Shown: positions 11,866-15,429 of the stretch, in pieces
How the letters are laid out: each line of letters begins with the position of its first letter
Numbering within the stretch: the stretch's first letter is position 1
Assembly (NCBI GenBank): GCA_913063325.1
Contig: CAJXYE010000010.1
Coordinates: 36,308 to 100,307 of the forward strand
Origin: an uncultured Colwellia sp.
GTDB taxonomy: Bacteria > Pseudomonadota > Gammaproteobacteria > Enterobacterales > Alteromonadaceae
DNA length: 64,000 nucleotides
Direction: 5' to 3'
Made by a program: the position numbers and the translations under genes
Notes under the pieces: model-generated
Databases searched by the model: none
Told to the model about the DNA's origin: nothing
What the model saw: the letters and a program-made list of their open reading frames with translations, nothing else

Positions 11866-12310
11866 ATTCAGGAGAATGTGCATCCTGCATTCTCTAATAA
11901 GGTACGTCCTGTACCGTCTGCATTCTCTTCTAAGTAACATAAAATTAAGTTGTTGATTTGTAATTAGATAACAAAAATATAAATACCGTCATCTTCGAAG
12001 TCTCTGATCGAAGATCCATTGTATTTTAGAAACTGGATCTTCGATCAGAGACTTCGAAGATGACGAACAAAGCTTTGCTGTACTTGCGGATAAAAATGTT
12101 ACTGGTAGATGGTTGGGGCGCAGCGGCTGATTCTCTAATAAGTAGCATCCTGGATTCAGGAGAATGTGCGTCCTGCATTCTCTAATAAGTCGCATCCATG
12201 CTACGTCCGACAAAAGACCTCGGGAATGACGACTTCATTGTAAGCGTCATCTTCGAGTTTACTTGTCGAAGATCCATTGTCTTATAAACTGGATTCAGGA
12301 GAATGTGCTC
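11866..12310. repeat. Mosaic REP-like repeat block, left of the insertion sequence
   Basis: The order is: ggattcaggagaatgtgc unit, ctgcattctctaataagg unit, a segment with a 77-base hairpin, further ctctaataagtagcatcc units, GTCATTCCC and GTCATCTTCGA units. A final ggattcaggagaatgtgctc is then broken by the insertion sequence. Bases from about 11885 to 12153 are nearly identical to 13679-13993 on the other side. Confidence 0.85.
11988..12064. repeat. Perfect 31-bp inverted repeat, copy 1
   Basis: Two perfectly complementary 31-base arms (starting GTCATCTTCGAAGTC, ending GACTTCGAAGATGAC) flank a 15-base loop. No T-run follows, so it is not a simple terminator. An identical hairpin lies at 13815-13891. 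Confidence 0.9.
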
Positions 12311-12339
12311 AGGATAATTGCTTATATGGACTCCTCATA

Positions 12340-12520
12340 TTGTGCAATAACAATTTAAAAATATTAGATGCGTGCTTATATACGGACTCTTAGTGGGAAG
12401 CTATCCCGGTCACTTTGATGTATTCGCACCTTCATGCCTAATCTCCTGCACGACATTATAAATATGTTCAGAGCAATTTACAGGCTGTTGAAGGTTGGTC
12501 TAACCATTTTAAAGATCTTT
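12340..12520 (-). ncRNA. Candidate bridge/seek RNA of the IS1111-group element
   Basis: IS1111-group elements are known to encode their guide RNA downstream of the transposase gene. In the transcript sense this segment contains UGCAGGAG (complement of 12443-12450), identical to the 8 bases just left of the insertion point read in the same sense. About 14 bases later comes GUGC (complement of 12426-12429), complementary to the first bases right of the insertion. A GCAUCU (complement of 12366-12371) could pair with the element's own terminal AGATGT, with one wobble pair. Ends and fold are not determined; the match of the other donor guide is poor. Confidence 0.45.
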
Positions 12521-12550
12521 ATTGAACAATATTAAACGCTTTATAACTTT

Positions 12551-13588
12551 TTAAGCCGCAATCAATACGGGCTTGTAATCCGTGTTGTTTTTCAATAATG
12601 CATAAGCGGTTCGTGCTGTTTTATTGGCTAACGCCATCGATGCACAATTAACTCCTCTACGTTCTATTAAGGCTTTTAACCAACGTTCTTTTTCTGTTTT
12701 GGCGGGCCTATTTTTTAGTTTCGACACCACAGCTCTCGCCCCTAAGAAAATACAACTGCGTAATGGCTTATCGCATGAGCCTTTTCCTACCGACCCCAAT
12801 TTTACTTTACCGCCACTGCTATGCTGTTTTGGCGTAAGGCCGATACAAGCGGCGACTTGCCTGCCACTGTTGAAGTGCTCACCATTGCCTAGCTGTATTT
12901 TCAGCCTAACCGCAGTAATAGGCCCAACACTTTCAAGCTTCATTAATTTTTGGCAATCACTATCTTGTGCGGTTAATTGTATTAACTCATTATTTATTTC
13001 TTCAAAATCGTCTTCAAGACGAGAATAGAGTTCCCACATTTGAAGTAACCCTTTTCTCATCGGGAAAGTTAAATCATTTTCAGCATCTTCTAAAATTTCA
13101 GGTATCCGTTCTTTAAAGCTTTTAATACTTTTATTGATAACAAGGCCAAACTCTAGCAACAAGCCACGTACTTGATTTGATAGTTGTAGCTTCTGCTTAT
13201 CAATCAGGCTTCTCATCTTTTCAATAGATTGAAGCCCTTGTTGTTCGACAGATAAAATCCTAGCGGGCTTTATATTAGCTGCTCGACTTGCAACGGCAAT
13301 CGCTACGGCATCATTCGCATCGGTTTTTTGACCGGTTCTAAACGGTTTAACTTGTTTAGGGGGTATAACCATTACTTTATGGCCTAAAGACTGAGAAAAT
13401 CTTGCCCAATAATGAGCACCGCCACAACTTTCCATAGCAATAAGAGAAAGCTTTTGTTTAGCTAACCATTCTTTTAACTTGGCTCTATTCATCGCTTTAT
13501 TAACAATTATTTTTCCATGTGTGGTCATAATGCAAACTTGAAAAATATCTTTTGCTAAATCGATAGCAATTACGTTACATTGTTCCAT
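12551..13588 (-). CDS. IS110-family DEDD transposase (bridge recombinase type)
   Basis: The ORF track opens at 13684, but the ATG at 13588 (MEQCNVIAIDLAKDIFQ) follows AGGAG at 8 bases and gives the usual 345 residues. The N-terminal RuvC-like DEDD domain shows Asp in AIDLAKDIFQ, Glu in AMESCGG and Asp pairs in KTDANDAVAIA. A coiled-coil linker follows (about 130-210). The C-terminal Transposase_20 domain has LESVGPITAVRL and GLTPKQHSSGGK with the catalytic Ser. No frameshift or stop is present, so it should be active. Confidence 0.95.
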   Translation of the reverse strand: MEQCNVIAIDLAKDIFQVCIMTTHGKIIVNKAMNRAKLKEWLAKQKLSLIAMESCGGAHYWARFSQSLGHKVMVIPPKQVKPFRTGQKTDANDAVAIAVASRAANIKPARILSVEQQGLQSIEKMRSLIDKQKLQLSNQVRGLLLEFGLVINKSIKSFKERIPEILEDAENDLTFPMRKGLLQMWELYSRLEDDFEEINNELIQLTAQDSDCQKLMKLESVGPITAVRLKIQLGNGEHFNSGRQVAACIGLTPKQHSSGGKVKLGSVGKGSCDKPLRSCIFLGARAVVSKLKNRPAKTEKERWLKALIERRGVNCASMALANKTARTAYALLKNNTDYKPVLIAA

Positions 13589-13678
13589 TGTGTGGACTCC
13601 TGGTAAAAGTTGATTTGAGTGAATGCTTTTCACTTTATACCGTAAATCTCCCGTTAAGGGGAGGAGTCCATACATCTC

Positions 13679-14022
13679 CTGCATTATCTAATAAGGTACT
13701 TCCTGTACCGTCTGCATTATCTAATAAGGTACGTCCTTTACCGTCTGCATTCTCTTCTAAGTAACATAAAATTAAGTTGTTGATTTGTAATTAGATAACA
13801 AAAATATAAATACCGTCATCTTCGAAGTCTCTGATCGAAGATCCATTGTATTTTAGAAACTGGATCTTCGATCAGAGACTTCGAAGATGACGAACAAAGA
13901 TTTGCTGTACTTGCGGATAAAAATGTTACTGGTAGTTACTGGTAGATGGTTGGGGCGCAGCGGCTGATTCTCTAATAAGTAGCATCCATGCTACGACCGA
14001 TCGGACAACTCGGGAATGACAA
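13679..14022. repeat. Mosaic REP-like repeat block, right of the insertion sequence
   Basis: The block resumes the interrupted repeat (ctcctgcattatctaataagg). It then has one extra ctaataaggtacgtcc unit and about 240 bases almost identical to 11919-12150, and ends with GTCATTCCCGAG in inverse. Together with the left block it brackets the insertion sequence in direct repeats. Confidence 0.85.
13815..13891. repeat. Perfect 31-bp inverted repeat, copy 2
   Basis: This copy has the same arms and the same 15-base loop as the hairpin at 11988-12064, in the same orientation. Confidence 0.9.
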
Positions 14023-14046: not shown

Positions 14047-15429
14047 TTATGAAAATAGCGTGTTATGTAATTTTTCAACAACAGAGTTAGCATCACTTTC
14101 ATCAACTAAAAAGCATAAGTTGTTGGCACTTGCACCATGGCAAATTAAACGAATATTAATATCGTTTATGGTATCAAAAATAGTTTGGCCAATACCTTTA
14201 GCGCTCGTTAAACCATTGCCGATCACGGCGACAAGTGATAATCCATGCTCAACGCTTACTTCACAAAGTTGCTCTAACTCTGCAACAACCGTATTAGTAA
14301 TTACTGATTGCGTTGAACCACTTGGATTATCGAAGGTTAACGCAACACTAATTTCACTGGTGGTGATTAAATCAATACTCAATTCATGTTTAGCTAATAT
14401 GCCAAATACTTTCGCTAAAAAACCACTGGCATGTAACATAGCCGGGCTTTTAACCGTAACAAGGGTTTGTTCACGTCTTAAGGCAATAGAACGATATGTT
14501 GGGTTCGATTCAACTTTTTTCTTAATTTGGGTCCCACCCTTTTCTGGCTCTTTACTTGAACCAACAAAAACGGGGATATTACGTCGCATAGCAGGAATAA
14601 GCGTTGCTGGGTGTAATATTTTAGCGCCAAAGGTAGCCATCTCCGCAGCTTCGCCAAAACTAATTTCTTTGATCGCGCGTGCTTGATCAGTAATACGTGG
14701 ATCAGTAGTGAAAATGCCAACTACGTCAGTCCAAATTGATAAGTTATTACCGTTTACCGCCTCGGCAAGTAACGCTGCTGAATAATCAGAGCCGCCTCGC
14801 CCTAACGTTGTCGTATGGCCTTGACTGTCTTGACCAATAAAACCTTGAGTAACAATCACTTTATTAACAAGTTTTGGCAGTAAAAGCTGTTTGCTTTGCT
14901 CACTTAACTGATTAATATCTACTACGGCTTTGCCATGCAAGCTATTAGTTTTCATTACTTGTTGTACATTGAAGTATTCACCAGCAATATCAATAGACTG
15001 TAAAACTTGGGCAAATACACGTGAACTTAATTGCTCGCCAAAGGCAAGGATCGCATCCGTAGTTTTAGTGGTGAATTGTAATGATTGCGTCAAAGCATGT
15101 TGCGTTAATTCATCAAGTAAGCTGTCTATTTCTTGATTAAGCTCTGCTTCTACTTTACTCGATAAGTGCTGAGTAATGTTGAGCTGAATTGCTCGAATGC
15201 TTTCAACGATATCTTTCTGCTCATCCAACGAAATATTCTTTTGGCTTAAACGTACTAAATAATTAGTAACGCCAGCACTGGCTGAAACAACAATTAAGCG
15301 GTTACTGGTATCGTTTTTAATAATATGAGCGCATCGTAACATTGCTTGAAAATCGGCTACGCTGGTGCCGCCAAACTTAGCTACGGTTAATGATGGTGTT
15401 GATTGTACTGAGTTTTGTACTGAATTCAC
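14047..15429 (-). CDS. lysC: Aspartate kinase, lysine-sensitive monofunctional type
   Basis: The 460-residue protein has the aspartokinase catalytic domain (VAKFGGTSVADFQAM at residue 17; TLGRGGSDYSAALLAEA; IWTDVVGIFTTDPR) and two C-terminal ACT domains that bind the feedback inhibitor. There is no homoserine dehydrogenase domain. The length fits LysC (AK III). It makes aspartyl phosphate, the first step to lysine, threonine and methionine. The lysine riboswitch in its leader confirms lysine as the controlling end product. It stands alone. Confidence 0.95.
   Translation of the reverse strand: MNSVQNSVQSTPSLTVAKFGGTSVADFQAMLRCAHIIKNDTSNRLIVVSASAGVTNYLVRLSQKNISLDEQKDIVESIRAIQLNITQHLSSKVEAELNQEIDSLLDELTQHALTQSLQFTTKTTDAILAFGEQLSSRVFAQVLQSIDIAGEYFNVQQVMKTNSLHGKAVVDINQLSEQSKQLLLPKLVNKVIVTQGFIGQDSQGHTTTLGRGGSDYSAALLAEAVNGNNLSIWTDVVGIFTTDPRITDQARAIKEISFGEAAEMATFGAKILHPATLIPAMRRNIPVFVGSSKEPEKGGTQIKKKVESNPTYRSIALRREQTLVTVKSPAMLHASGFLAKVFGILAKHELSIDLITTSEISVALTFDNPSGSTQSVITNTVVAELEQLCEVSVEHGLSLVAVIGNGLTSAKGIGQTIFDTINDINIRLICHGASANNLCFLVDESDANSVVEKLHNTLFS

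What the first reader, a model, noticed from the sequence alone, without database searches (positions are those of the whole stretch)
12340..12520. Candidate bridge (seek) RNA with an 8-nt match to the target repeat
In the transcript sense the region has UGCAGGAG, identical to the left flank of the target. This is followed within one loop length by GUGC, complementary to the right flank. The order (left guide first, right guide second) and the place (downstream of the transposase in an IS1111-type element) agree with the known RNA-guided recombination of this family. GCAUCU further on could read the element's own end. This would be a natural bridge RNA programmed for a REP-like repeat.
Basis: partly seen in the sequence, partly recalled or inferred. 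Interest (0 to 1): 0.85.

Follow-up and report, generated by a model that had tools for sequence, protein, structure and literature searches.

The report
IS1111 bridge RNA aimed at repeats
A Colwellia jumping gene carries a small two-loop RNA that picks its landing site by base pairing, and close relatives whose RNA guide differs by only two letters sit in correspondingly different copies of the same genomic repeat; this is a clear new example of a known mechanism.

Summary
The candidate bridge/seek RNA is real, but one of its two target guides was misassigned. A 1.35-kb IS1111-type element (12323-13675, transposase on the - strand) lies in an interspersed repeat. An exact empty copy of the site gives target TGCAGG-AG-CAATT (AG = 2-nt core). 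Its GUGC is not a guide: the real right flank is CAATTATCC, and GUGC is conserved scaffold (donor-loop stem). A relative 95% identical in protein has four substitutions in about 260 nt of the non-coding region; two fall in this guide and match its different right flank (CATATT). Across 33 elements guides fit their own flanks (permutation p<=5e-5) and sister pairs confirm it. Two loops are supported by covariation, and a covariance model built without the window's clade scores it 100 bits. A donor loop reads the element's own ends and core and changes with them. RNA and activity were not observed. Verdict: new member of a known kind (IS1111 seekRNA/bridge RNA).

The parts
12323..13675 (-). IS1111-type insertion sequence, ends excluding the 2-nt core
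   Evidence: Ends fixed by empty site, by the L013/L052 comparison and by sTIRs common to relatives
12551..13588 (-). DEDD transposase/recombinase, 345 aa (GLTPKQHSSGG motif)
   Evidence: PF01548 E 1e-18, PF02371 E 6e-15; ISCro4 and IS621 structures match by sequence
12364..12498 (-). bridge RNA / long seekRNA core, two loops
   Evidence: CM built without the window's clade: 100 bits, E 2.9e-23, only significant hit in 64 kb; covariation
12489..12495 (-). target-loop closing stem, 5' arm ACCUUCA
   Evidence: columns 5-10/88-93 of A1: 100% paired, 5 of 6 pairs with changes on both sides
12428..12434 (-). target-loop closing stem, 3' arm UGAAGGU
   Evidence: as above
12471..12478 (-). right target guide AAUUGCUC, complementary to GAG+CAATT
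   Evidence: differs from L013/L052 exactly as their right flanks differ; own-flank test
12443..12450 (-). left target guide UGCAGGAG, identical to left flank + core
12417..12423 (-). right donor guide AUACAUC, complementary to the left end G+ATGTAT
   Evidence: changes to AUACAUU in CA-core elements L015, L016, L098
12375..12381 (-). left donor guide AUAUAAG, identical to right end ATATA + core AG
   Evidence: 7/7 to own RE class in 65% of elements versus 2% of other classes
   Evidence: helix 4, 93.5% paired
   Evidence: helix 4
13676..13677 (-). 2-nt core (AG) at the left end
   Evidence: LE core = RE core in 33 of 35 relatives
12321..12322 (-). 2-nt core (AG) at the right end
13661..13672 (-). 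subterminal inverted repeat, left end (TATGGACTCCTC)
   Evidence: sequence
12325..12336 (-). subterminal inverted repeat, right end (GAGGAGTCCATA)
   Evidence: sequence
12312..12320 (-). true right flank of the target, CAATTATCC
   Evidence: empty site L042/L043
13678..13687 (-). left flank of the target, ..ATAATGCAGG
   Evidence: empty site L042/L043

Best explanation
The segment encodes a bridge RNA (long seekRNA) of an IS1111-group element. The RNA folds into a target loop and a donor loop. In the target loop the 5' strand AAUUGCUC pairs with the top strand GAG+CAATT on the right of the insertion point, and the 3' strand UGCAGGAG pairs with the bottom strand on the left; the two overlap in the AG core. 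In the donor loop AUACAUC pairs with the element's left end and AUAUAAG matches its right end including the core. The DEDD recombinase then exchanges strands at the 2-nt core, as shown for IS621, inserting the circular element without gain or loss of bases into an interspersed REP-like repeat. Transcription probably starts at a promoter formed when the ends join in the circle. Shown here: site, ends, guide-flank match, co-variation, fold. Inferred: transcription, RNP formation, strand exchange and current activity.
For: Empty site identical to the joined flanks. 95%-identical relative with two compensating guide changes. Own-flank score 10.73/12 versus 8.91 for other elements' flanks, permutation p<=5e-5, guides at a fixed place in most elements. 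Among sister elements with 85-99% identical scaffold whose guides and right flanks differ, own right flank beat swapped right flank in nearly every pair not involving the rearranged L054, and lost in none. Equal cores at both ends in 33/35. Covarying two-loop structure, 177 cells with double changes versus 53.6 shuffled. CM without the window clade: 100 bits. Donor guides follow their own ends. Three bridge-RNA loci in the genome, each with a right guide matching its own right flank.
Against: No RNA-seq or activity data. Single-sequence fold is not unusual (z -1.21). Only one full copy in this genome. L054 and L055 right flanks do not match (L054 carries a partial second copy, L055 a decayed right end). 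Only one further perfect site in the genome, so the element may be inactive. Permutations do not remove relatedness; the sister-pair test does.
Confidence: 0.94

Rival explanations
1. One reading: right target guide is GUGC (12426-12429), left guide first, right flank GCACATTC.
For: GUGC is complementary to GCAC, which lies 13 bases beyond the right end.
Against: Empty site puts the right flank at CAATTATCC. GUGC is nearly invariant in relatives with different right flanks and lies in stems. L013/L052 changes its flank and AAUUGCUC together while GUGC stays.
Confidence: 0.02
2. The target loop alone works (short seekRNA, ISEc11 model); the donor-loop resemblance is processing scaffold and end recognition is by protein binding to the sTIRs.
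For: An 82-nt seekRNA was sufficient for ISEc11 transposition (PMC11187229).
Against: Donor guides change together with element ends over at least six changes on the tree, including CATA, TGTA and TACA ends and the core letters; AUACAUU appears with CA cores. Durrant 2024 also predicted IS1111 donor nucleotides (PMC11208160).
Confidence: 0.2
3. A decayed, inactive element whose guide match is a relic.
For: One full copy, one remaining perfect empty site.
Against: Transposase frame intact, ends and guides intact; a relative with retargeted guide and intact frame.
Confidence: 0.15
4. Guide-flank matches are chance or reflect shared ancestry of flanks and NCR.
For: Related elements share repeats as targets.
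Against: Sister pairs with 85-99% identical scaffold but different flanks keep their own match.
Confidence: 0.01

Closest known systems
IS1111-family seekRNAs (ISEc11, ISPa11, ISKpn4, ISPst6; Siddiquee 2024, PMC11187229)
   Same: Downstream NCR, top-strand guide 5' of bottom-strand guide, overlapping matches, sTIRs, no target duplication, target loop of about 70-80 nt; ISPa11 also targets a REP; ISEc11/ISXne4 natural redirection
   Different: Target is a Colwellia repeat; retargeting by two bases at 95% protein identity; donor-loop co-variation documented here, not discussed there
IS621 bridge RNA (Durrant 2024 PMC11208160; Hiraizumi 2024 PMC11208158)
   Same: Target loop plus donor loop, two guides each, dinucleotide core, REP target
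   Different: RNA 3' rather than 5' of the gene; guide order reversed in both loops; core AG/CG/CA instead of CT; long sTIRs
Predicted IS1111 bridge RNAs (Durrant 2024, Fig. 6 and Extended Data Fig. 10)
   Same: RNA in the right end with target, donor and core complementarity
   Different: Those were found by manual inspection of six IS110/IS1111 elements; here tested by co-variation on 33-66 elements

Membership tests
IS1111 group of the IS110 family | DEDD transposase with PF01548 and PF02371, 330-350 aa, GLxPxxxxSG motif | tested here: met
   345 aa, GLTPKQHSSGG in the sequence
IS1111 group of the IS110 family | Subterminal inverted repeats of 7-17 bp | tested here: met
   12 bp TATGGACTCCTC/GAGGAGTCCATA
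IS1111 group of the IS110 family | Long non-coding region downstream of tnp | tested here: met
   about 225 nt between tnp stop and right end
IS1111 group of the IS110 family | Insertion without target duplication | tested here: met
   joined flanks = empty site L042
IS1111 seekRNA | Two short matches to both target strands, top-strand match 5' of bottom-strand match | tested here: met
IS1111 seekRNA | RNA of about 80 and 150 nt bound to the transposase | not testable with these tools
   no RNA data; a predicted target-loop fold of 68 nt (12428-12495) exists
IS1111 seekRNA | Promoter at the circle junction | tested here: inconclusive
   -35-like TTG and -10-like TA-rich hexamer across the core in all 36 relatives, scores 7-11 of 12; consensus match only
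Bridge RNA (IS621 type) | Target loop and donor loop each with two guides, dinucleotide core | tested here: met
Bridge RNA (IS621 type) | Left guide 5' of right guide; RNA in the left end; CT core | tested here: not met
   order reversed, RNA in right end, AG core

The most novel reading that the evidence does not exclude
IS1111 RNAs carry a true, co-evolving donor loop that reads the element's own ends and core, so they are full two-loop bridge RNAs with both guide orders reversed; near-identical elements switch between subfamilies of a host repeat by two-base guide changes.
Probability: 0.75. Interest if true: 0.5.

Novelty: new member of a known kind. Interest (0 to 1): 0.4.

Why it matters
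It supplies a natural experiment for IS1111 targeting: elements 95% identical in protein whose RNAs differ by two guide bases, each sitting in the matching subfamily of the same repeat. It also gives evolutionary evidence that IS1111 RNAs read their own ends, which published work left open (donor nucleotides predicted by inspection in one study, long RNA of unclear role in the other). The 36-sequence alignment and the model allow such RNAs and their targets to be read off genomes.

Tried and rejected
Rfam gave nothing here at gathering or relaxed threshold. Single-sequence folding was not significant; only the alignment is informative. The first alignment was in the wrong orientation. The repeat pattern excluded the real sites by its end letters; replace it. 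The reversed guide order (left first) also exceeds permutations (mean 10.03) because one guide alone still matches somewhere, but less than right-first (10.73). In A1 the inner donor stem is misregistered by one column between AG- and CG-core groups, so its 67% pairing is an underestimate. Literature searches found no IS1111 structural or donor-loop study after 2024 in the open library; preprints and subscription journals are not covered.

Full report
The element. A 345-aa transposase (window 12551-13588, - strand) matches PF01548 and PF02371 and, by sequence, the solved ISCro4 and IS621 recombinases. It is the only full copy in its genome; the closest relative is in a Colwellia. All positions below are window coordinates; the RNA is read on the - strand.

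Ends and target. A 95%-identical element, L013/L052 (G001), shares everything between ..GCAGGAG|ATGTATGGACTCCTC and GAGGAGTCCATATA|AG.. and differs outside. The sister genome G001 holds an empty repeat (L042) GACGGTACAGGAAGTACCTTATTAGATAATGCAGGAGCAATTATCCTGAGCACATTCTCC, which is exactly the window's two flanks joined; the window's own genome has another, near-identical one (L043). In 33 of 35 relatives the two bases beside both ends are the same (AG 17, CG 13, CA 3; the other two are CG/TG), which marks a 2-nt core.

Guides. The partner is AAUUGCUC (12471-12478), complementary to GAG+CAATT, lying 5' of it. L052 has AAUAUGCUC, complementary to its own flank GAG+CATATT; the non-coding regions of the two differ by four substitutions in about 260 nt, and two of them are these (chance about 3e-4). 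L053 (88%) has the same right guide as L052 and the same flank CATATT. The order, top-strand guide first, is the one published for IS1111 seekRNAs and the reverse of IS110 types (PMC11187229).

Family-wide test. For 33 elements with defined ends, the two 6-nt flanks (core excluded) were scored against every RNA: own 10.73 of 12, others 8.91 (sd 0.80); observed sum 354, largest of 20,000 permutations 316. In most elements the matching sites fall at the same place in the RNA. Among sister elements with 85-99% identical scaffold and differing guides and right flanks, own right flank beat the swapped one in nearly every pair not involving L054, and in none did the swap win; the remaining pairs tie, for example L071/L056. 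This controls for relatedness. Some residual mismatches are G.U wobbles (L056, L021).

Exceptions. L054's right end runs into a transposase fragment followed by a second identical RNA copy, whose outer flank CAGCAC fits the guide at its first three positions; its genome holds a repeat CGCAGGAGCAGTT that fits better (L143). L055 has a decayed right end, and its genome holds GCAGGAGCAATT repeats fitting its guide.

Fold. On 36 relatives a hand-drawn two-loop structure has 89.1% paired cells (70.2% shuffled, at most 48% when slid), 17 of 24 pairs with changes on both sides and a covariation score of 0.530 versus 0.185; the target-loop closing stem is 100% paired with 5 of 6 pairs covarying. The structure was drawn from these sequences, so the slide control leans towards it. 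A covariance model built from 25 relatives without the window's clade finds 12364-12498 with 100 bits, E 2.9e-23, and no other significant hit in 64 kb. In the whole genome it finds three loci, each beside an intact or broken IS1111 transposase and each with a right guide fitting its own right flank.

Donor loop. That loop holds AUACAUC (12417-12423), complementary to the left end, and AUAUAAG (12375-12381), identical to the right end plus core. Across 66 elements the right-end match is 7/7 in 65% against 2% for ends of another class. Where the right end reads CATA, TGTA or TACA instead of TATA the loop reads the same, with at least six changes on the transposase tree, and CA-core elements L015, L016 and L098 carry AUACAUU. 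Durrant et al. predicted donor nucleotides in IS1111 RNAs by inspection (PMC11208160); Siddiquee et al. found an 82-nt RNA sufficient for ISEc11 (PMC11187229). The present data favour a working donor loop but cannot settle it.

Target specificity in the genome. The window's genome has 41 copies of GCAGGAGCNNATT, all fitting most of the left guide, and one empty TGCAGGAGCAATT. The element sits in a CAATT site, while L052 and L053 sit in CATATT sites, the commonest form in their genomes (most pattern hits). The site is an imperfect palindrome with the core beside its loop, so REP-like is a fair description.

Expression. Joining the ends places a conserved TTG-type -35 and a TA-rich -10 across the core with 16-18 nt spacing in all 36 relatives, as described for ISEc11; this is a consensus match only.

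Conclusion. The finding is real in kind and wrong in detail. It is a new, well-defined IS1111 bridge RNA; the mechanism is known, and the added value is natural retargeting by two bases and co-variation support for a donor loop.

Noticed in passing
G000:C73:20100-21396 (L002, L008, L148): A second IS1111 element of the same genome (44% protein identity) with guides GAUCUUCG and UUAAUCG for another host repeat; copies of that repeat lie in the window near 11987-12075 and 13813-13890.
   Followed up: partly
G000:C81:13022-13152 (L149): A bridge RNA with right guide CUAUCUCG fitting its own right flank CGAGATAG beside a transposase broken by stops.
   Followed up: partly
window:15584-15808: Lysine riboswitch (Rfam RF00168, 87 bits) upstream of the aspartokinase-like gene 14047-15429 (-).
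   Followed up: no
L054:2642-3665: Element with a partial second copy: right end, transposase fragment, second identical bridge RNA and right end in tandem.
   Followed up: partly
L036, L037, L096, L101, L117, L119 and similar: Relatives whose flanks look like integron attC sites (left flank ..TAAC, right flank GC..), as known for ISKpn4-type elements; they match the R1 RNA model.
   Followed up: no
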